Made by a program: the position numbers and the translations under genes
Source of the DNA: Liolophura sinensis
Lineage: Eukaryota; Mollusca; Polyplacophora; Chitonida; Chitonidae
DNA: 64,000 nucleotides
Assembly (NCBI RefSeq): GCF_032854445.1
Contig: NC_088302.1
Span: 20,271,338-20,335,337 of the forward strand
Direction of reading: 5' to 3'
Part shown: piece by piece, positions 9,440 through 63,043 of the stretch
Layout of the letters: each line of letters opens with the position of its first letter
How positions within the stretch are numbered: the first letter of the stretch is position 1
The notes under the pieces: generated by a model
What the model was told of the DNA's origin: nothing
The model's input: only the letters and a program-made list of their open reading frames with translations
Databases searched by the model: none

Positions 9440-9596
9440 AAATTTCTTGACACATCGCCATGTTAGTTTGGCGAAATAACTGCCATACTCTTTTCGAACT
9501 TTGAAAAAATTTAGATAGTGGCAATACAAAGTAACTCATTATAGGTAGGAGGATCATTTGGCTGTGTAACAGCCTCGCGGCTCTCGGATGAAGGAA

Positions 9597-12500
9597 ATGG
9601 AGTATCGCAGTGTCGTCTTCAACGCCGCGAGGGACGGTAAACTCAGTCGGCTGCGGATTTTTCTCGACCACAAATCCTCGGAAGAGATATGGCGGCTTGT
9701 TCACGCCAAGACGTACGGTGCTACCCCACTCATCATGGCCTGCCGAAATGGCCACCTTGACATTGTGAAATATCTGCTTGATATATGTGAGGCTGACATA
9801 GAACAAGTGGGCTCGGTGACGTTTGACGGAGAGAAAATCGAAGGCGCCCCGCCGCTGTGGTGTGCGGCCGCCGCAGGGCACCTGTCTATCGTCAAGATTC
9901 TGGTTGAGAGGGGTGGGGACGTTAACAAGACAACTTTCACCAACTCCACCCCACTCAGGGCAGCCTGCTTTGACGGACACTTTGATATCGTCAAGTACCT
10001 TGTAGCCCACAGTGCAGACATTGAAATAGCAAACCGACATGGTCACACTTGCCTGATGATCTCCTGTTACAAAGGGCACATGGACATAGCTAAATATCTA
10101 CTTCAGTTAGGTGCAGACGTCAACAGAAAAAGTGTCAAAGGTAAATTTCAGGCTGTGAACAGTAACTGTAAGCAGCAGTGTTCAGCATGGATGTGATATA
10201 AAAAAAATCATCAGTATTCCAGAACTGAATATCAAATTAGTCCTACTTCAGGCTACTTGATGCCACTTTCACTCTGATATGTTGATGTTACTACAGCAGA
10301 GTCAAACATTTTACATTTACTTTCTTGGAGTAGTGTCAGAGATCTACTTCCACGTACCTCAGGCACTTATTGTGAGTCTCTGCGAAAGTATGGACCTCTA
10401 CAAATATGCTTGCTACAATTTCAGCTGTCTCAGCGTTTTTTCCTTAGCCGGCCAATCTTGAAAATTACCACCCAGAGTGAAAGTGAAACCAACCTGTAAT
10501 GGGTGTATGACTGCACTTAGTGACATGAAAATATTGGAGTGATGGTGGCGTCAAGTGGGACTACAGTCATATACAGGGATTCATGGCCAAGCTAGTGTGC
10601 TGTTTTAAATTTTTGGCATTCATCGTGACACTTTAAAGAAATCTCATTATAGTTCCAAGTGAGCTTTAGAAGTCGATCAGTCTGTTAATGTTTTTATATC
10701 TATCCTTTTAACATGAGCCATTCAATTAATAGGGACCATGATGACTCAACAGCACATATACAGAAAACAGAACTATCTGTTTTAGGTTCTTTGACTTTAG
10801 CTTACATGTACATATCAGTGTCAGTCTTAATTGGGGCTGCCCTCTGTGACTTTCGTCCCACTGTGACTTTCCAGTATATATAAAATGATTATATTCTGAT
10901 CAAGTTAACTTATTTCGAACATAAGCATCAGTTGTATGTCCTATTGTGCTAGCACAGTTACATGTATTATACAAATAATGCACCTACAAAGTAGGAGACA
11001 GTGAGAATTTAATTAATGACTTCAGACAGATGGGAAGTTTAGGAATGAATACTTTGAGCCGTCCAGGTGGAGTACATTCAAAAAATATAAAATAAAAACA
11101 AAAAAATATAAATCTGTTCAACCGGATATATATATTTAAACAATTTCTTGCGTTCTGACTATCACCAAAATGCCAACAGAGATTGAGGTGAAAGTACAGA
11201 TATGTATACCAACAATCAAGTGAGTAAAAATCATAACAAGGGCATAAACTTGTAAAACATGCTCTATTGTATTTACAGGTTTATGCCCATATTATGATTT
11301 CTGTAACATGAAAATAATGTTTAGCTGTGAGTCAGTCCTTTCTAGTATAAATATGCTGCACTCACAAGCACATCACTGTCTGCTGCAAGATATGTTCTGG
11401 AGTTTGGACTGATACTTTACACAGCAATATCACATGCAATAGCATATTGTAAAACTAGGTCAGAGTCTAAGGCTATCGATGAAGTAGATATTCCATTAAT
11501 TTTAATTCAACCTTGAAATTTGCATTGAGAACACTTGATTTTTAGTGTTAGCGTAATGTGTGTATTATGCAATGCATTTTATTTTCAGTTTTATTTCATC
11601 GCTGTTCAAGCTTGAAAGCTGCTTTTATGCATTTTGTGCACGCTGGACAATACAAAGGTTTAATAGCATCAATGGCAAAAGCCAGTGAAATTTGGCAAAG
11701 GGAGGTAACTAATTTAAACAAATCCTACCTTACCCAATCAGAGGATTAGCCAGAAATGCGAAAGAGGGTGTTACATCCCTTTTTCAGGCCGTTCTGTTAT
11801 ACCACGGTGTCCGGATTTCATTTTCTCCTACATGTACCTCTTCATTGTTAAAAGTACTGAAAACAAGGTGTCCAACTAGCACCAGTTTTCTGTTTCACCT
11901 GTCCAAGCGGGTAGCTGGCTAAACCTATGTGCCCAGTATGTTCATTACGACATTTAATACCAAGAATCAATAAGCTTAAATTTTACACTAATTGTAAATG
12001 ATCAGCTGCTAGCATATTAGCTACTGTAACGTAACTTTTTATTATAGGATTATAAGATGATTGCTTTTTGTTATTTTCAGGGAATACAGCCCTACACGAT
12101 TGTGCCGAGTCAGGTAGTCTGGATATCCTGAAGATGTTACTGCGCCATGGCGCGAAGATGGAGCGAGACGCATATGGCATGACACCATTGCTGGCCGCCG
12201 CTATCTCTGGCTACACCAAAATTGTTGAGTTCCTGATCTCTAGGCAGCAATGTGCAAAGTCTGAGAGAATCAGTGCTTTAGAACTACTCGGGGCCACGTA
12301 TGTGGATAAAAAACGTGATATGTTGGGGGCTCTGAACTTTTGGAGGCAAGCCATGGAGGAGAGATATTCTGACACCCGAAACCCTGTAGTTAAGCCCATT
12401 AATATCAGCAAGGTGGCAGCGTACGAGAATGCTGAGGAGGTGAGGACACTAGAACAGCTGGATGAGCTGATCTCTGATCCGGACGATATGAGGATGCAGG

Positions 12501-13405
12501 CCTTGCTGGTCAGGGAGAGAATCCTTGGCCCTGCTCACCCTGATACCTCCTACTATATACGTTACCGCGGCGCCCTTTATGCTGATATGGGCAACTTTGA
12601 TCGCTGTATTACGCTATGGATGTACGCTTTAGATATGCAGCAAGGAATTTTAGAACCCCTCAGTCCAATGACACAAAGCAGTTTTTTGTCATTCGCGGAG
12701 CTCTTCTCTTTCATGACAACGGAGTGGCGGAGTCGTCCCACATACCTCATCGCATTTAATGACATCATGGCCGTCTTGACACGAGCAGTGGACGAATTGG
12801 AGAGGGGAGGCAAACTGCTATCCAAGACGGATAAACCCGAGCGAGACTTAACCAACTATAATCGGTTACTTGTGATCATTATGCATCTGCTGTGCTTGAT
12901 GTGTAGAATTCAGACCTCACTGACTTCTGAAGAGGAACACCTCTTCAAGATAAAAGCTTATAAGCTTGTACATATGCACCCGAAAGGTGAAAAGAGTTCA
13001 AGTCCCCTGCACCTGGCCTGCTCCCGAGATACGACGCATGTTGGCCGCTATCCTGTCTGCTCCTTCCCCTCAGCCGAAGTTGTGCGTTTACTGGTAGAGG
13101 TTGGCGCGCCAGTGGATGACAAAGACGATGACAATAATACTCCGCTGCATGTAGCTGCTAGCAATAGACCCTGCAAGTCTGAGGTTATTCGAGCTTTACT
13201 TGGCAGTGGGGCTCACATTGATGCCTGCAATTGTGATAGAAAAACCCCTATGCAACTCATCAGAGGTTTAACAATATATGACATAGTCTCGCCCTTGAAC
13301 TATCTTTCTCTGCAGTGCTTGGCAGCCAGGAAAATTGTCAAATGTGGTATCCCTTATCAAGGACAAGTTCCCAAGAAAATGGAAATGTTTGTGGAAATGC
13401 ATTGA
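9597..13405 (+). CDS. fem1c: Fem-1 homologue, FEM1A/C type; CUL2 ubiquitin-ligase substrate receptor
   Basis: Two coding exons, 9597-10140 and 12081-13405, are joined across a phase-1 GT/AG intron (AAG|GTAAAT, TTTTCAG|GGAA), giving 622 residues to TGA; family members have about 617. Exon 1 carries the N-terminal ankyrin repeats (GATPLIMACRNGHLDIVKYL, APPLWCAAAAGHLSIVKIL, HTCLMISCYKGHMDIAKYLL). Exon 2 continues NTALHDCAESGSLDILKMLL, the helical middle region (ALELLGATYVDKKRDMLGAL, ILGPAHPDTSYYIRYRGALY) and the C-terminal ankyrin part ending near CLAAR and the final VEMH. In the family, FEM1 joins CUL2-elongin B/C and binds C-terminal degrons. D77 and D126, known in FEM1C for the degron pocket, fall here in FDGE and CFDGH. 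An earlier in-frame ATG at 9588 would add MKE; 9597 has the better Kozak context (G at -3 and +4), and numbering from it matches FEM1C without gaps to residue 130. Orthology to FEM1C rather than FEM1A is not resolved. Confidence 0.95.
11743..11928 (+). mobile_element. MITE-like repeat, family D (copy 2), in the FEM1 intron
   Basis: Same order of blocks as the copy at 1015-1180, from TTAGCCAGAAAT to GCTGGCTAAACC. The left and right ends are inverted. It lies inside the 1.9-kb FEM1 intron, about 150 bp before the exon 2 acceptor. The rest of the intron shows nothing recognisable. Confidence 0.5.
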
Positions 13406-15005: not shown

Positions 15006-15937
15006 GTATCCTTGCACTTTTATGTTGACAGGCTAAGTTTTAGCATGCAGCTTCAAATAGTTTGTGATGTATAAAAGAAAATTTTTGGAGTTTATACCAA
15101 TCTGGCTTTGTGAAACAGACATCTGTACCAGTATGCTATGATTGGCTTAGCACCATGTATGGCTTGCGTCTGTGTGGGTTTGAGACTGGCTCGCCATGAA
15201 AAGAATGTTACATGCATACCCCAATCACACTTGGTACTGTTGTAGATGTTAGGACTGTGTATTACCAATCACAAGTGTCAATTCATAAACACTAGTATCC
15301 AAATGAGCTCTTTTAAAAGTGAGAAAGCTTATGCTCATGATATGATCAGAATCTGTGTCATGTCTTTCTGCCAGGTCGCATGCTGGAACAAGGGAGACAA
15401 TCCTGGATAGTACTCTGGCCTGATTTACCTTTGAACAGAGCGTATCAAATAATGTTATCTTTTAAGCTCTACATATACTTTCCTTTCCTGTGCTATTGTT
15501 TAGGGAGCATTTTCCCTCTTAAAAGTCTTTATGTCAGCAAAGAGCTGTATGGGTACTTGTAAATCAGTGTGGCTGAAAGTTTAACAGCGATCCCCAGAAT
15601 AACTAGCATAAACTCCAGCATACAATGTACAGTAGGTGATCCCTTCAATTTGATTTTCTAGTAAGTATGTATAAGCCCAAGTATTATTCACTTATCACTT
15701 CAGCTTGTTGTGCTTCTGCAGAGCATCCTGGAACCCCAACTGAAAAAATTCTCATGAAAATGACCTTTTTGGGGAACGGGAAAAATGATTTTACATGAAT
15801 ATAAAAATCACACACCTAAGGTATCTTCAGTCCGCTTTGAGAAGTCAAGAATATTTCACTGATACATATACACTGCTGGCAGGGTTGCCCATCATAGTTT
15901 TGTTCAGTTGTTGACACACCTCTTCATGTTTAAACGA
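15006..15937. other. No gene or repeat recognised
   Basis: AT-rich unique-looking sequence between the family C repeat and the satellite. A 60-codon ORF at 15380-15562 has no recognisable content. Confidence 0.4.
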
Positions 15938-15959
15938 TTATGAACAGTAGTCATCAGGA

Positions 15960-18290
15960 CAAACACAGAAAGCAGACACTACATGGGAATTGGCCAACGC
16001 ATGGGAACAAACCAAACCACGAGAGCCAGACAAAGCACAGAAATCAGACACTACATGGGAATTGGCCAACGTATGGGAACCAGGCAAACCACAAGAGCCA
16101 GGCAAACCATAGAAATCAGACACTACATGGGAATTGGCCAATGCACGGAAACCAGACAAACCATAGAAATCAGACACTACATGGGAATTGGCCAACGCAT
16201 GGGAACCAGGAGAGCCAGGCAAACCATAGAAATTGGACACTACATGGGAATTGGCCAATGCACGGAAACCAGGCAAACCACAAGAGCCAGGCAAACCACA
16301 GATATCAGTCACTACATGGGAATTGGCCAACGCATGGGAACCAGGCAAACCACAGAAATCAGACACTACGTGGGAATTGGCCAATGCATGGGAACCAGAG
16401 CCAGGCAAAATACAGAAAGCAGACACTTCATGGGAATTGGTCAACACATGGCAACCAGGCGAACCACAAGAGTCAGGCAATGCATAGAAATGAGTCGCTA
16501 CATGGGAATTGGCCAACACTTGGGAACCAGGCAACCCAAGAGAGCCAGGCAAACCACAGAAATCAGACACTACATGGGAATTGGCCAACACACGGGAACC
16601 AGGCAAACCACAAGAGCCAGGCAAAGCACAGAAATCAGACACTACATGGGAATTGGCCAATGCATGGGAACCAGGCAAACCATGAGAGCCAAGCAAACCA
16701 CAGAAATCAGACACTACATGGGAATTGGCCAACGCATGGGAACCAGGCAACCCACGAGAGCCAGGCAAACCACAGAAATCAGACACTATGTGGGAATTGG
16801 CCAACACACGGGAACCAGGCAAAGCACAGAAAGCAGACACTGCATGGGAATTGGCCAACGCATGGGAACCAGGCAAACCACAAGAGCCAGGCAAACCACA
16901 GAAATCAGACACTACATGGGAATTGGCCAATGCATGGGAACCAGGCAAACCATGAGAGCCAAGCAAACCACAGAAATCAGACACTACATGGGAATTGGCC
17001 AACGCATGGGAACCAGGCAACCCACGAGAGCCAGGCAAACCACAGAAATCAGACACTATGTGGGAATTGGCCAACACACGGGAACCAGGCAAAGCACAGA
17101 AAGCAGACACTGCATGGGAATTGGCCAACGCATGGGAACCAGGCAAACCACAAGAGCCAGGCAAACCACAGAAATCAGACACTACATGGGAATTGGCCAA
17201 TGCATGGGAACCAGGCAAACCATGAGAGCCAAGCAAACCACAGAAATCAGACACTACATGGGAATTGGCCAACGCATGGGAACCAGGCAACCCACGAGAG
17301 CCAGGCAAACCACAGAAATCAGACACTATGTGGGAATTGGCCAACACACGGGAACCAGGCAAAGCACAGAAAGCAGACACTGCATGGGAATTGGCCAACG
17401 CATGGGAACCAGGCAAACCACAAGAGCCAGGCAAACCACAGAAATCAGACACTACATGGGAATTGGCCAATGCATGGGAACCAGGCAAACCATGAGAGCC
17501 AAGCAAACCACAGAAATCAGACACTACATGGGAATTGGCCAACGCATGGGAACCAGGCAACCCACGAGAGCCAGGCAAACCACAGAAATCAGACACTATG
17601 TGGGAATTGGCCAACACACGGGAACCAGGCAAAGCACAGAAAGCAGACATTGCATGGGAATTGGCCAACGCATGGGAACCAGGCAAACCACAAGAGCCAG
17701 GCAAAGCACAGAAATCAGTCACTACATGGGAATTGGCCAACGCTTGGGAACCAGGCAAACCACAAGAGCCAGGCAAAGCACAGAAATCAGACACTACATG
17801 GGAATTGGTCAACGCATGGGAACCAGGCAAACCACAAGAGCCAGGCAAAGCACAGAAATCAGACACTACATGGGAATTGGCCAACACATGGGAACCAGGC
17901 AAGCCATGAGAGCCAGGCAAAGCACAGAAATCAGACACTACATGGGAATTGGCCAACGCACGGAAACCAGGCAAACCACGAGAGCCAGGCAAAGCACAGA
18001 AATCAGACACTACATAGGAATTGGCCAACACATGGGAACCAGGCAAACCACAAGAGCCAAGCAAACCATAGAAATCAGATACTACGTGGGAATTGGCCAA
18101 TGCATGGGAACCAGGCAAACCACAAGAGCCAGGCAAAGCACAGAAATCAGACACTACATGGGAATTGGCCAACGCATGGGAACCAGGCAAACCACAAGAG
18201 CCAGGCAAACCACAGAAAGCAGACACTACATGGGAATTGGCCAACACATGGGAACCAGGCAACCCACAGAAACCCACAGAAACCAGAATC
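15960..18290 (+). repeat. Satellite array, 72/54-bp units with 270-bp higher-order repeat
   Basis: About 35 tandem units. A full unit is 72 bp: CATGGGAATTGGCCAACG, then CATGGGAACCAGGCAAACC, then ACAAGAGCCAGGCAAACC, then ACAGAAATCAGACACTA. Shorter 54-bp units lack the third block. Between about 16600 and 17700 four 270-bp blocks (72+72+72+54) repeat almost identically; sequence 540 bp apart differs at only a few bases. Every unit is a multiple of 9 bp, so two plus-strand frames (15940-18438 and 15983-18310) and one minus-strand frame (18277-15938) stay open over 2.3 kb. The third plus frame (WELANAWEPGKPQEPGKPQ) has a stop wherever a unit carries CCATGAG. No start context, splice sites or family match supports a protein; I treat the ORFs as by-products, though transcription is possible. 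Confidence 0.9.
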
Positions 18291-19810
18291 TAGCGAAACG
18301 GAGGAAATAGGCCAAGATATGAGAATCCGACACAATCTAGGAACTAAGCAAAACAAGAAAAGCACACACGATATAGGTTCCTGGCAAAATATGGGAACCG
18401 GACAAAACATGGAGATCTGGCAAAACATAAATACATAGCAATTGGACAAATTGTGGGAACCAGACAAAACAAAGGACAAAAGCACCGCGGACAAAAACCC
18501 TGGCGGACAAAAGCCCCATCATCTTAATTAACTGACACAACATATCCGACAATCTAACAAACATAATGGTAAATACTTGTTGACTGGAATTCATGTAGTG
18601 TGACTTTGTTTTCCATCTAAAAATGTCATCAAAGCGTATGACCCAGTTTGTCACTCGGGTCCAACAGCTATCCTCTCCTAAGTATTGCACACGTACGTTT
18701 TCAGAACAATATACATCAACATGGCATACAGGTTTTAGCTTACCACCATGCACAGTATCACCTCGCAGCTACCAAAAGGTATGCATTTTGAGTTGGTTTA
18801 CAGGAATCTTTTTTTGTAATTTTGTGTTCACTATAATGGATGTATTTAAACATTTTGATTATTTAGAAATTTACACCGCATCATATAGTTCAAAAGAAAA
18901 ATAAGAATAAAAAATAATTTATTTTATTATAATGAATAAAAAATAATTTATTTTTTATAGGTTACTGTGTATTTTTTTCTCTTTTTTTATATGCCCTACA
19001 TGGATGTATATAATGAATAAAATGAATCAGTGGTTTCATTATTAAATCGGAAGCATGCTATATTAATCACGTAAATTAAAATTTATATATTATTCCCCTA
19101 AATCAGGAAAAATGACAGTTGGCTGCATCTTTCTAAATATCTACTCTTTTGAAAAAAAAAACAAAAAAAAAAAACAGACAAATTTTGTTTTGTTTGTTTT
19201 GAAGGTTAAACAATCACTGCTTCAAGTATTTGGAATCAACCATTTTCTTTAGAGCTGTTAGACTATAGCATGTAAATTATATTTCCAGGATAGGAATAAT
19301 TGGCATACACATAAGATATATAAGATACACAAGCTCCCATACAGCAACTGGCCAGCAACTTGTAGACTTCTTCAGTTTTCAGATAAGCCGATCAAACATT
19401 CTGTATACCATTGAGAGATATATAGCTCTTTCTGATGTCATCAAAAACGGTTAGAATACATGGAGATGGAACGAGTAAGAAGGGTTTCTATTCATTGCAA
19501 ACATGTATTGAAATCTGAAATGTCAATTCAGGAAGAGTGTTTTAAGCTTTCCCCAACAAGCAACAACTTCATATTTTACCATATACACTTAATACTGATC
19601 CACGGGCTTGCGTTCGCCAGAGTTCTTGTCTGCCAGGGGTTTTGTTTGCAGGGTTTTCATCCACCAGGGTTATTGTTTGCCGGGGCTTTTGTCTGTCCCC
19701 CAAAATAAGGGAACCTGACAAAATATAAGTACAAGGTAAACACAAGACTGACTCCAAACAAAATGCATGGAGGAAGCATGCCAAACATGGGAACAAGGCA
19801 AAAAACTGAA
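18290..19810. repeat. Degenerate satellite edges with an inverted portion
   Basis: After the array, units decay into 17-20-bp pieces on the plus strand (GGGAACCGGACAAAACATGG, GGCGGACAAAAGCCCC to about 18520). At about 19610-19705 the same pieces recur inverted (GCCGGGGCTTTTGTCTGTCC, GCCAGGGGTTTTGTTTGC), then plus-oriented ones again to about 19807. The 1.1 kb between holds AT-rich DNA with A/T runs and no gene that I recognise. Confidence 0.55.
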
Positions 19811-24390: not shown

Positions 24391-24740
24391 TGGCAAGTGT
24401 AAGTTCAAGAGAAGTCTTCGGTGCTATGTTTGCCAACAAGTCCTTTGGCAACTAATGCTTACAGCAGTTTCAATAATGTAATTCTTGGAGAAAGGATAAA
24501 TTTTAAACTAAGTTAAGAGTGAGGTGTATGAAATGAGTATGCATATAGTTCAAAACTGTTCACCTTGAGGTCTTTACAATGAGTAGGAATATGAACAAAT
24601 GGCACATATTTAATAAGAAACTTTTGGAAAAAAAAAGCTAATTTTTATCACAGTTTTCTTGTCCATTACTTGGCAGTGTGACATCATGACTGGTGGGTGT
24701 CACTTCATAATTACATGGATTATCTGCCAGCCATACATAT

Positions 24741-27700
24741 CTAGCTAGCTAGAAAATAAGGAATCTCTTCAAGGTTGATTCTGTAGTCATATATCCAGCG
24801 ACCACCATCTAGGTCCAGTCTTTTCAGAGGGTCCTTCCATTTGCCAGAGGGTAAATAAATATTACGTTTCCGAGTTTTCTCACAAAGCACTGGAGCCACA
24901 AGAATATCATTGCCCACCAGGAACTCATCGCCTATACCCTGGGCGACAGCGTCCTGGGGATCCACCCACCAAATGGGTCGAATCAGGGGTGCTCCGTGCA
25001 TGACCTCTTGGGCCAACTTGTTAATCAGTGGGATAATTGTCTTGATGTGGAACTGCGTCCAGTTCTTCAGCAGTTCAAAGTTCTGCGGAGTGAAACCGTG
25101 CGGAGGAGTGTACACTTTCATGACAGGCAAGAAGGCGGACATTTGAGTCCACCTGAGGAATAAATCCTCGCCCACTATGCCCTGGGACCAGAGTTCAGAG
25201 CCGTCTAGGGCCAAATATGGGTAGCCAAGAATCCCTGCAGTCAGCAGAGATGGTATAATGTCGGTTAAGCATCGATCAGGCCCCCTCATTTCTAGCCTGC
25301 CCATGATGCTGATAGCTATTGGCAGGTTCTGAGTGCCCATGCCAGAGTGCATTAAGGTCGTGTTGGTGAAATTTGTCACCAGATAATTGTACGTTGTGGT
25401 GTACCACACGGGATCAAAAGTCTCCTTGAACTGCGCCTTAAACGGCAAGATTCCTGATTCTCCATGTAAAAATTTGAAGGTGTGTATGCCAAATTTGGCC
25501 TTTAAAATCTTAAGCTTTGTAAGAAACCACTTCACAGCATCTGGATTAGAGATGTCCAGGTAGGCCAACTGGTCTCCTTGCCACTTGGTCAATCCTACAG
25601 CATCCCCTCCAGCATCGCGAACGAAATAATTCTTTCTCAATAAGTAATCAAAGTTTCTTGAGAGAAAATGACTGAAGAGGCTAACAGGCAAAGAGAGCTG
25701 GCAGCCATGAGAAGAGAGGTTCTGTAACATCAAAGTTATATCCTCCAGGTCTTCTGTCTTGAATGCCAAGTCTCCCAAATAAGTCTCCCAACCAAAGTCC
25801 AACTCTACCACCCCACAGGACTGAGTTGAGTTACTGTCCAGGAAGTCTATAAGATCCAGAGCCATGGCATGTAAAGGTTCAGTGACGTTGGTGAGGTTAA
25901 CAGGCCCGATAGCCCATACTGGTGTCCGCAGCCAATCCCGGAGAACTGGCGTCTGTGGACTCGGAGCTGTGTTGAAGAACTGCCTCATGGCCAGGTGTGT
26001 GGTTTCCATATTGTCTGCTTTACACATCGTATAGTGCAGGTGGGACAGATTACCAGCCGTTTTTCTTGCATAGAAAGGATGGCGATACGAAGACCAAATG
26101 CAGAACTTATCAGGTAAATCGTTGTTCCAGCTCAGCAAAATGGGGTCTTCTTCGCTGGTGATGAAAGCAATGCCGTTGGATGCCAGCCAGTAGCGCTCCA
26201 CCACAGATCCTAGCACCCTACCTCCACCAGGAACCAGGGGTACGTAAGAGAAGTTTTGGGCGGAGAGGGTATGATGTGACCCACGGATATTGGCCGACAA
26301 TCCGTACCAGTCCAGGATGCCAATATCGTAACAATCCTTTGGCTCTATGTTACGATTCAGACTTTCCCAGGTGACATTGTAACAATGCATGGAGTTGAGT
26401 TTGTAGTAGAGGACTTTGAGCGAAGCACCATTTCTCCACCAGTAACACAGTTTGTTAATCTCCTCCCATTCATCGGAACAGCTCTTGGGTAGCTGCCAGC
26501 TTGGCAGATTCAGGCCTAATACCCCTTCCTCCACGGGGTCACTGCTGTCAAATGCCAGGTACAGCGTCCTCGTATCTTCCATAAAACGAAACTTTTGTCC
26601 GCTCAAGATTGCCAGCCTCTCTTCCTTGTAGAATGACCAGGTGACCAGCACCCCGACAAGAATCATCAGAAACAAAATTACCACAACAATCTTCAGTCCA
26701 AGTCCAGGTGGCCTTTGTCGCTTTTTCTTAATCTGCAAACACAGAATAAAACCATTATACAGCTAATCATTAATGAAATGGAAACAGTAAGAGAATGAAA
26801 GGGAGAGGAGGAATGGGAGGGGCAACAAAGACAAAGAAGAAGCAATGGAGACAAATGAGGGAGGAAATGGAAACAAAGGAAGGACAGGAGAGGCAATAAA
26901 GACAGAGGAGGGGCAATGAAGACAGAGGAGGGGCAGAATGGGCAATGAAGATGGAGAGGCAAAATGGGTAATAAAGACAGAGGAGGGGCAGGATGGGCAA
27001 TGAAGACAGAGGGGCAGGATGGGCCATAAAGACAGAGAAGAGGCAATGAAGACAAAGAGGGACAGGAGGGGCAATGAAGACAGAGGAGGGGCAACGAAAA
27101 CAGAGGAAGGGCAATGGAGACAGAAGGACTATGAGGATGGGGGACAAGGGGCAATATAGATAAAACATTGGGCAACACAACTCAAAACGCGAAACTGAGA
27201 AAATGTAAAGTTTCTGAAAAGCAAACAAAATAAAAGGCACAATCACTACCAAAAACCACTTTTATTTACTTTTATTTCTCACCCAAACTGTAGATGAGGT
27301 ATACATGAGGCTTGATTTCAAAGCTGTGAAGTTTAATATGGATGCAGTAATGCTATGTTTTATGTAATACGTATACATTTCCTAGTGTTAATCATGACAA
27401 GATCGGATCTATATTAAACACATCTAATCAAATAATAGCCATAAAATCTACTTCACAAGCCATAAAACGCTTAAATGAAGATGTATTGCTCAGCACCAGA
27501 GCACAAACTGTCAGCAAAAAGGTGGCTTTTAATCACGACACTTCTCACTGCTCACAGCACCTGGAAGTTGTTCCCTTGCTATGACATGGCTGATGTGGTT
27601 TAGCAGTAGAGGCCTTACAACTCTAGTCTGACAAGCTTGCGGTGCAGGGACTGGCCTGAGCAGGGACAGCCATGACATAAGCCAGGGACAAGATGATTAG

Positions 27701-29962
27701 CCATCACACCACATCGCTGTATCCCACTGATAACTCCCAGAAGTGTGATGCGACCGGAAGACAATCTCCTCCTTGACATCCATGCCCCGTTCACATCAAA
27801 AACGTCATGGTGAAAATGTAGTTATTCAACATTCACTTACATCTTACTCTCTAACTTTTCTCAAACGTCACCCTCTTTACACTCATCAGCTGTTCTCTTA
27901 CTCCATTCATTCTACACCTATACCTAAGTGCTGTTCTCTTTTTATCCTTCACCAACTCTACACTTAGCAGATGTTCTCATACTCCACCTACCAGATGTTT
28001 TCCTACTCTATCCATTCTACACCTAAGTAAAGTTATCTTGTTATCCATCACCAACCCCACATCTACCAGGCTAGTCTCCTACTCCATCCTTTCTACACCT
28101 AGGTATGGTTATCCTTTTATCGGCCCTGCACCTACTAGCTGTTCTTACACTCTGCCCATTCTACACCTAAGTACAGTTACCTTTTCATCCTCCACCCACT
28201 CCACACCTACCAGATATTCTCATACTTCACCTACACCTAACAACTGTTCTCATACTCCACTCATTCCACACCTAAGTACAGTTATCCTGTTATCCACTCT
28301 ACACCTAACAGCTGTTCTCATATTCCACTCATTCCACATCTACCAGCTGTTCTTACACACTTATACCGTTAATACAGTTATCTTTTTATTCTTCATTTCC
28401 CCTACATATACAGATGTCAGCTCACACTCTCAGCTCACAATACACCATGTAGTTGTTCTCATATTTCAACAAGACTACACCCATTACACCATAGCTGTGT
28501 TCTCATTCTTGACGCACACCATAACCTGGAAACCAGGTAAAGACAGTGATTTTTAAACTTTCAGTTAATTTGTTTGCATTTATTTGTTCTATGTAGCAGT
28601 TAAACCTCTCTTCCTGGTCCATACGCATTAAATGGTGATATGTCACCAAAACCTTGTAAATGCACCCATCTAAAGAGTTCAGTGCCCTAAGAAAAGCAAT
28701 AAGCTGTTGTACATGAATCTGACCTACATGTACATTGGTGAGTGAATTGTATTGCAGTTTTAAAAAATAAGAAAAATATAGTCATTTGCACTCTTTCGCA
28801 TAGTAATAGAAATTTCTGGGTTGTACCTTTACAAGATTGAAAATCACACATACTGAAGTCAGCAGAATGAATAGATGCATTTATCCCTTATATGTACCAG
28901 AAGTATCCGGGTGGGTGGGAAATGGGGGAGGGGGGCCAAATGGTGCAAGGTATTTCATCACACATGAGTAGGTCAGTACAGGCATTTCTAAGATGTTTAC
29001 TGCTCTGTACTTAAATGTTCCAACAGGAACTGACACAGGTTGCATGCATTCTTTGACCTGTTCGTAGCAAAATTCATGTACACTTGTAAACTGCTGTCAT
29101 TAAATGAAAAAACAACAACACAATTTAAAAGTTTTTAAAATTTACAATGTAAAATTGGATATACAATAGTATTATAGTGAAACATTCCAGCAATTTCTCA
29201 TATATCAAAAATATGTTTCTGAAATATATCACAATGAAAATTATTGGATGTTTTTGATTAGAGCCAGGACTTGATTATATTATTCTATATCTGTTAATAC
29301 AGATACTTTTCCTAAATGTTTAAAAATATGTTACACATTGCTTTTAAAACATTAAGGTCACGCAGCTATCATAGCCATTATGTACCGTGTTATGTAATTC
29401 TAAAAACTTCAAAGCAAGAAAAACAAAACATTTTTACAACTTTGAAGTCTTTCTCCTTAACTTTCCCCAAAATTCATAAAGTGCCTAAAAGAAAGTTTAA
29501 TGTCAAAATTTAAATTTATAGAGGTCGAGATGTACTTAAAAGGTGAGTAATAAAATGTAGATGTATGAATATCAAACTGGCTGTTGCCTATAGTTGTGGG
29601 TGTGGTCATTACTTACCTTTTTGAGAGATTCCCCAGGTATGTCGATGGTGGCCCGGACCAGGCTGGTGCTGTTCCTGTGTCGGAACATTGGCATATGTCT
29701 GTCCACCTGCACATATGATTCATTATTGTCGCTGTCCCCACTGACGTCACCGTTGTCCCCAGACTTACTAGCCTTCCTTTTCCCGTGATCCCTCTTGGTC
29801 GAGCCATGTTTTTTCTTGTGGGATGGCTTACTGTCGAACTTGACCACAGAGTTTTGTGGTTTGAAGTTGGCAGAGTGGCCATCGCCGTCCAAATTGTTCA
29901 TTTCCACCTGCTCCGACGTGGCCGTCTTGGGCTTGCTAAGCAGTTCCTCTGCTTCCTGCTCA
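24741..29962 (-). CDS. MYORG-like family 31 glycosidase homologue (type II membrane protein), probably catalytically dead
   Basis: Main exon 26732-24741 (663 residues, TAG stop) and upstream exon 29962-29617 are joined by a phase-0 GT/AG intron (AAAAAG|GTAAGT; TGTTTGCAG|ATTAAG). With the 17-base exon proposed at 33097-33081 the protein has 784 residues; without it, an ATG at 29901 gives 758. Order: a charged Lys/Ser-rich cytosolic region of about 115 residues (KKKHGSTKRDHGKRKASKSG), KKKRQRPP, a membrane anchor (IVVVILFLMILVGVLV), then a luminal GH31 barrel with many N-glycosylation sequons and a MYORG-type end (LPSGKWKDPL, then YRINLEEIPYFLAS). MYORG is an ER/Golgi alpha-galactosidase-type enzyme. 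Where MYORG has FKFDAGE with nucleophile D463, this protein has FKFLHGE (codon 25469-25467). The position of acid/base D520 is Gly (25301-25299) and that of R504 is His (25349-25347). Residue numbers of human MYORG are from memory. Confidence 0.88.
26775..27165 (-). repeat. Polypurine/polypyrimidine minisatellite in the MYORG-like intron
   Basis: The plus strand repeats AGACAGAGGAGGGGCAATGA with an 18-21-bp period; the transcript strand is therefore C/T-rich. It ends about 40 bp before the main-exon acceptor at 26733. Long low-complexity minus-strand ORFs over it (Pro/Ser/Leu/Cys) are by-products. Confidence 0.8.
27840..28480 (-). repeat. Degenerate tandem array, unit about 75-80 bp
   Basis: Plus-strand words CATTCTACACCTAAGTACAG, TTATCCTTTTATCC, CACACCTACCAG and CTGTTCTCATACTCCACTC recur in order seven or eight times. 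It lies in the same MYORG-like intron. The rest of that intron (28560-29616) is AT-rich with nothing recognised. Confidence 0.7.
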
Positions 29963-53643: not shown

Positions 53644-53772
53644 CTCATGACTCTCTTGTCATGAGAAACTAAGAAGAAATGGCCTAGCCAGTTGGACGAG
53701 CAGTTATAAACTCTTACAAGAATATTGCACCTGTCTTGACCATTGCTGATACCTCTGTGTTCTTTATTTCAG

Positions 53773-63043
<9,271 letters not shown>

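What the first reader, a model, noticed from the sequence alone, without database searches (positions are those of the whole stretch)
25299..25469. MYORG-like glycosidase with both catalytic aspartates replaced
The overall fold markers and the C-terminus are clearly of the MYORG type, and the ORF is intact over 663 codons. But the nucleophile motif FKFDAGE reads FKFLHGE, the acid/base Asp position is Gly, and the substrate-binding Arg position is His. An intact reading frame with three active-site changes suggests a conserved pseudoenzyme (binding, chaperone-like or regulatory role) rather than a decayed gene.
Basis: partly seen in the sequence, partly recalled or inferred. Interest (0 to 1): 0.72.

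Follow-up and report, generated by a model that had tools for sequence, protein, structure and literature searches.

The report
Catalytically dead MYORG-like protein, mollusc
A mollusc genome carries an intact gene for a membrane-anchored relative of the sugar-cutting enzyme MYORG whose cutting site has been dismantled, so it probably does a binding or regulatory job beside a working MYORG; similar dead relatives are already reported in flies.

Summary
The minus-strand exon 26732-24741 (663 sense codons) encodes a MYORG/NET37-type GH31 protein (best solved match MYORG, E 8e-61). The given coordinates run exactly from the nucleophile codon (Leu for D463) to the acid/base codon (Gly for D520). 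The damage is wider than reported: 8 of 10 MYORG pocket residues are replaced; D353 and K461 remain. The same genome has a complete MYORG (C9) and other MYORG-like copies with both catalytic aspartates.

Decay is not uniform: no stop in 663 codons at about 30% identity to relatives, and 20 of 22 invariant C-terminal-domain residues kept against 48 of 102 in the barrel (p = 1e-4). Best reading: a membrane-anchored non-catalytic protein kept for its fold. Conservation across species could not be tested (no related animal genome available). Pocket loss is not significantly greater than loss in the rest of the barrel (p = 0.17), and structure prediction failed (pLDDT 38).

NET37/MYORG paralogues without catalytic residues are published for Diptera (PMC8063059), so this is a new member of a known kind.

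The parts
24741..26732 (-). Main coding exon, 663 sense codons plus TAG: transmembrane segment, N-terminal beta domain, GH31 barrel, C-terminal beta domain
26733..26734 (-). Splice acceptor AG after a pyrimidine-rich stretch (inferred)
29617..29901 (-). Candidate 5' exon from its first in-frame ATG (95 codons), ending AAG/gtaagt in phase 0, which matches the acceptor; inferred, no transcript
   Evidence: found once in the genome, no Pfam match
26643..26699 (-). Transmembrane segment GLKIVVVILFLMILVGVLV (mean Kyte-Doolittle 3.04 over 19)
25467..25469 (-). Nucleophile position (MYORG D463): Leu
25299..25301 (-). Acid/base position (MYORG D520): Gly
25347..25349 (-). R504 position: His
25308..25310 (-). 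R517 position: Ser
25578..25580 (-). W426 position: Gln
25794..25796 (-). D354 position: Phe
25905..25907 (-). W321 position: Gly (beside an alignment gap)
26223..26225 (-). D213 position: Gly (beside an alignment gap; Gly also in C1_34)
25797..25799 (-). D353 position: Asp kept
25473..25475 (-). K461 position: Lys kept
24744..24995 (-). C-terminal beta domain (PF21365 match 582-663): 20 of 22 family-invariant residues kept

Best explanation
This is a type II membrane-anchored paralogue of MYORG that has lost GH31 catalysis and is maintained as a folded, non-catalytic protein. Shown: both catalytic carboxylates and six of the other eight pocket residues are replaced; the frame, a transmembrane segment, the C158/C284 disulphide cysteines and the C-terminal beta domain are kept; a complete MYORG sits elsewhere in the genome. 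Inferred: it sits in the ER/nuclear-envelope membrane with its barrel in the lumen, as MYORG does, and works through protein contacts, as a partner or modulator of catalytic MYORG or as a scaffold for client glycoproteins. A galactose lectin of the ancestral kind is unlikely, because most sugar-contacting residues are gone. The stated confidence is for 'maintained non-catalytic protein'; for the MYORG-partner mechanism in particular it is about 0.2 to 0.3.
For: Pocket loss: 8 of 10 residues, while human MYORG, C9, C1_A and C1_D keep 10 of 10 and C1_34 keeps 9 of 10; both catalytic Asp are present in 12 of 12 other aligned sequences. Frame: neutral drift simulated from C9 left 0 of 400 stop-free frames at each t of 0.1 or more, while 8 or more pocket changes appear in 24% of runs only at t 0.4 and 50% at t 0.6, with means of 26 and 32 stops. 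Domain-uneven constraint: of columns invariant in the five relatives it keeps 9 of 16 (N-terminal domain), 48 of 102 (barrel) and 20 of 22 (C-terminal domain), barrel against C-terminal domain p = 1.2e-4; the five relatives, each left out in turn, keep 82-99% of barrel columns. Coding-like base composition: GC by codon position 0.495/0.385/0.56, close to C9's 0.505/0.401/0.51, in a region of about 0.33-0.45 GC. C158 and C284 both kept, second cysteine pair aligned with C9's. Complete MYORG in the same genome. Precedent: dipteran NET37 clade without catalytic residues, two members expressed (PMC8063059 passages).
Against: No orthologue, transcript or protein data. The pocket is not significantly more eroded than the rest of the barrel (2 of 9 against 36 of 75, p = 0.17; against all domains p = 0.078). 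The branch is long (1.88 against 0.50-0.83 for C9, C1_34 and human), as relaxed constraint would also give. The 5' exon is only inferred. MYORG dimer-interface residues are only partly kept: F402 and L422 identical, Y397F and V406L similar, E407R, L419A, I429Q changed. Structure prediction gave no usable model.
Confidence: 0.7

Rival explanations
1. A gene under relaxed constraint on its way out: selected until recently, with a reading frame that has simply not yet broken.
For: Long branch; barrel constraint much reduced, 48 of 102; pocket not singled out within the barrel (p = 0.17); no transcript evidence.
Against: At least 14 nucleotide changes in the pocket codons and about 30% identity with no stop; C-terminal domain 20 of 22. 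Very recent release from constraint would not explain so many pocket changes, unless the barrel relaxed long before the rest.
Confidence: 0.18
2. An enzyme with migrated or new catalytic residues, or another activity on the GH31 scaffold.
For: Annotated pseudoenzymes have proved active in other families (e.g. USP53/54, abstract start in the listing); D353, K461 and the Glu of FKFLHGE are kept.
Against: The retaining GH31 mechanism needs both carboxylates, and Leu and Gly cannot replace them; six of the eight non-catalytic pocket contacts are gone too.
Confidence: 0.07
3. A galactoside- or glycan-binding lectin derived from the old pocket.
For: D353 (4-OH contact) and K461 (3-OH contact) are kept; dead glycosidases can become lectins (recalled).
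Against: W321, D354, W426, R504 and R517 are all replaced, so ancestral sugar binding is probably weak.
Confidence: 0.04
4. An assembly or sequencing artefact.
For: Only one assembly was seen.
Against: The whole protein is only 31% identical to C9, the frame is clean, and at least 14 pocket nucleotides differ.
Confidence: 0.01

Closest known systems
MYORG (NET37, KIAA1161), GH31 alpha-galactosidase, PDB 7QQF/7QQG/7QQH
   Same: Best sequence match; N-terminal transmembrane segment, N-terminal beta domain, barrel and C-terminal beta domain, with no distal C-terminal domain; C158/C284 cysteines
   Different: Both catalytic Asp and six of eight other pocket residues replaced; 27% identity
Dipteran NET37 'clade IV' glycosidases without catalytic residues (Lutzomyia LlGlyMyo1/2; PMC8063059, passages read)
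   Same: Non-catalytic NET37/MYORG paralogues with one N-terminal transmembrane domain, beside paralogues that keep the catalytic residues
   Different: The passages give the proton donor of LlGlyMyo1/2 as Pro; here both catalytic residues and most of the pocket are gone, in a mollusc. Orthology not tested: no dipteran sequence was fetched
Lysosomal alpha-glucosidases of sandfly and mosquitoes without catalytic residues (GH31; PMC8063059, passages read)
   Same: GH31 proteins with both catalytic Asp replaced (Gln in the sandfly)
   Different: Another GH31 branch
Dead paralogues that regulate live ones (iRhoms PMC3149277; AdoMetDC prozyme PMC5201418; abstract starts seen in listing)
   Same: Analogy of mechanism only: a dead paralogue beside a live one
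   Different: Unrelated folds; no interaction shown here

Membership tests
MYORG/NET37 branch of GH31 (by descent) | Closest sequence relative is MYORG | tested here: met
   7qqh/7qqf first of 61 distinct PDB sequences, E 8e-61; next 8e-24
MYORG/NET37 branch of GH31 (by descent) | One N-terminal transmembrane segment before the GH31 part | tested here: met
   Hydropathy 3.04 over 19 residues
MYORG/NET37 branch of GH31 (by descent) | N-terminal beta domain, barrel, proximal beta domain; no distal C-terminal domain | tested here: met
   PF01055 and PF21365 in order, stop two residues after the PF21365 match; full-length alignment
MYORG/NET37 branch of GH31 (by descent) | Disulphide C158-C284 | tested here: met
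   Both Cys aligned. The C125-C134 pair lies outside the human stretch used; two Cys align with C9's pair there
Catalytic MYORG / active GH31 enzyme | Two catalytic Asp (D463, D520) | tested here: not met
   Leu and Gly
Catalytic MYORG / active GH31 enzyme | Pocket W321, D353, D354, W426, K461, R504, R517, D213 | tested here: not met
   2 of 8 kept
Catalytic MYORG / active GH31 enzyme | Alpha-galactosidase activity | not testable with these tools
   Needs an assay
Maintained pseudoenzyme | Non-random retention of the coding frame and of structural residues | tested here: met
Maintained pseudoenzyme | Conservation among orthologues with dN/dS below 1 | not testable with these tools
   No related animal genome held
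Maintained pseudoenzyme | Expression | not testable with these tools
   No transcript data
Dipteran NET37 clade IV | Common descent of the dead forms | not tested
   No dipteran sequence fetched

The most novel reading that the evidence does not exclude
An old molluscan MYORG paralogue whose barrel was freed from catalysis while its C-terminal domain stayed under selection, and which works as a non-catalytic subunit or gatekeeper of the intact MYORG, making a non-enzymatic side of MYORG biology testable.
Probability: 0.2. Interest if true: 0.6.

Novelty: new member of a known kind. Interest (0 to 1): 0.42.

Why it matters
MYORG loss causes human brain calcification, and its natural substrate is unknown (PMC9491548, passages). 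A lineage that keeps the MYORG scaffold, membrane anchor and C-terminal domain but discards the active site would suggest that the scaffold has a job apart from catalysis. With the dipteran cases it would suggest that this family gives rise to dead paralogues repeatedly, if the two prove independent, which was not tested here.

Tried and rejected
Structure prediction with six bacterial relatives gave mean pLDDT 38.3 and pTM 0.35, so no fold search was made and nothing on pocket shape rests on it. One viral-contig scan with the protein found no relative; one with the alignment found three distant ones, too few to rerun the model. The prokaryote scan gave seven distant bacterial GH31 loci; all seven were aligned, L018 was dropped from the rooted tree and from the structure alignment for poor fit.

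Pocket-specific loss was tested and not significant (p = 0.078 against all other invariant columns; p = 0.17 within the barrel). I therefore claim only barrel-wide loss with the C-terminal domain spared.

Placement in the tree is unresolved (five placements, none rejected by AU at 0.05). NCBIfam gave only matches far below cut-off. The candidate 5' exon has no relative in this genome and no Pfam match.

Of the 64 GH31 matches in the genome only MYORG-like loci found (14 matches) were examined. Four paralogues were aligned; partial copies in L021, L022 and the first part of L023 were read but not aligned. The genome search warns that missing matches do not show absence.

Literature: 130 papers, 30 listed; 1; 82, 15 listed; 0; 0; 92, 15 listed; 14,808, 15 listed, none of the 15 with the MYORG name; 3. 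None of the listed papers reports a molluscan MYORG pseudoenzyme by its title or abstract start. Only an open-access library was searched, and one search was too broad to be a real test.

Full report
What is there. The minus strand of the window has a frame open for 673 codons from 26762 to 24741. An acceptor (ttctgtgtttgcag/ATT) lies at 26733-26734, so the exon starts at 26732 and has 663 sense codons plus TAG. No ATG lies in frame between the acceptor and the transmembrane segment, so a 5' exon is needed. A candidate stands at 29617-29901 with a consensus donor (AAG/gtaagt) in the matching phase 0. It would give a 95-residue charged tail and a protein of about 758 residues. This join is inferred. 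The candidate exon was found once in the genome and has no Pfam match. One ATTAAA lies downstream of the stop, at 24614.

What it is. Pfam finds the GH31 barrel and C-terminal domains. The best solved relatives are MYORG 7qqh/7qqf (E 8e-61 and 1e-60), ahead of bacterial-type GH31 alpha-galactosidases (8e-24). Identity over the common part is 27% to human MYORG and 31% to the C9 paralogue, while C9 and human MYORG share 43%. The protein has one strong transmembrane segment and ten N-glycosylation sequons, and both cysteines of the C158-C284 disulphide. The genome is molluscan: eight PF14830 haemocyanin units lie within about 11 kb on C8, and one of them has full-length gastropod-type haemocyanins, keyhole limpet KLH1 among them, as best PDB matches. 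That PF14830 is a molluscan family is recalled. The species was not identified.

The active site. Residue roles are from PMC9491548 (passages, section 7). Of ten pocket residues eight are replaced: D213G, W321G, D354F, W426Q, D463L, R504H, R517S, D520G. D353 and K461 are kept. Human MYORG, C9, C1_A and C1_D keep all ten and C1_34 keeps nine (D213 is Gly). Both catalytic Asp are present in 12 of 12 other aligned sequences, seven bacterial ones included. At least 14 nucleotide changes separate the pocket codons from C9's residues.

Other copies. C9:21736260-21738011 is a complete MYORG, 673 residues from ATG to stop in one open frame, also with an acceptor-like site just upstream of its ATG. A tandem MYORG-like cluster lies at C1:32.24-32.28 Mb and a multi-exon copy at C1:34.18-34.19 Mb. 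Partial copies that were read but not aligned have FKFDGGE (L021) and FKFDAGE (first L023 copy). No second copy close to the window gene was found.

Is it kept? Simulated neutral drift from C9 left 0 of 400 stop-free frames at each t from 0.1 to 1.0; eight or more pocket changes occurred in 24% of runs at t 0.4 and 50% at t 0.6, with mean stops of 25.6 and 31.9 (substitutions only, no indels). Of 140 columns invariant in the five relatives the window protein keeps 77: 9 of 16 in the N-terminal domain, 48 of 102 in the barrel, 20 of 22 in the C-terminal domain; barrel against C-terminal domain p = 1.2e-4. As a control, each of the five relatives was left out in turn, on columns invariant in the other four: barrel 82-99%, C-terminal domain 73-100%, pocket 9 of 9 or 9 of 10. 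So loss is concentrated in the catalytic barrel and decay is not uniform. Results against over-reading: the pocket is not significantly worse than the rest of the barrel (2 of 9 against 36 of 75, p = 0.17), and the branch is long (1.88 against 0.50-0.83 for C9, C1_34 and human), so relaxed constraint on the barrel is likely whatever its cause.

Age. Rooted with bacterial GH31 sequences, the window protein falls outside human and mollusc MYORGs (UFBoot 94), which could be long-branch attraction. Four alternative placements are not rejected at 0.05 (AU p 0.051-0.127). It is not a recent copy; more cannot be said.

Mechanism. Canonical GH31 hydrolysis is excluded on sequence grounds. Ancestral galactose binding is unlikely because six of the eight non-catalytic pocket contacts are gone. 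What remains is a membrane-anchored folded scaffold with a well-kept C-terminal domain. The best guess is protein-protein work in the ER or nuclear envelope, perhaps with catalytic MYORG, which is itself a dimer. The interface residues neither support nor refute a heterodimer: F402 and L422 identical, Y397F and V406L similar, E407R, L419A and I429Q changed; C9 itself keeps only F402 and L422 of the seven.

Known or new. The sandfly study PMC8063059 (passages) reports a dipteran clade of NET37 glycosidases without catalytic residues, and RT-PCR expression of two members (LlGlyMyo1/2) in gut and carcass. It also reports lysosomal GH31 proteins without catalytic residues. A dead MYORG paralogue is therefore a known kind. 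What is added is the molluscan lineage, the near-total loss of the pocket and the domain-uneven constraint. The literature searches made listed no molluscan report, in an open-access library and partly from capped lists.

Noticed in passing
window 15934-18438: A long tandem minisatellite (HGNWPTHGNQ-type repeats) open in two plus frames (834 and 788 codons) and one minus frame (783 codons), with strong AT skew.
   Followed up: no
window 9570-13405 (+): Two exons rich in ankyrin repeats, FEM-1-like by recall.
   Followed up: partly
window 53740-61564 (+): Exon-like ORFs, one with a zf-met zinc finger (61121-61564); ZFR-like by recall.
   Followed up: partly
L022 (G000 C1:32258001-32268000): ORFs that look, by eye and recall only, like an integrase and a packaging ATPase of a Polinton-type mobile element, lying inside the MYORG-like tandem cluster and next to a truncated copy.
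   Followed up: no
L024:1616-2623 (-): A 335-codon transposase-like ORF (by recall) just downstream of the multi-exon MYORG-like copy.
   Followed up: no
L021:2406-5334 (G000 C1:32.2504-32.2533 Mb): A tandem MYORG-like copy reading FKFDGGE, spread over several frames, with two last exons in a row: probably a broken copy.
   Followed up: no
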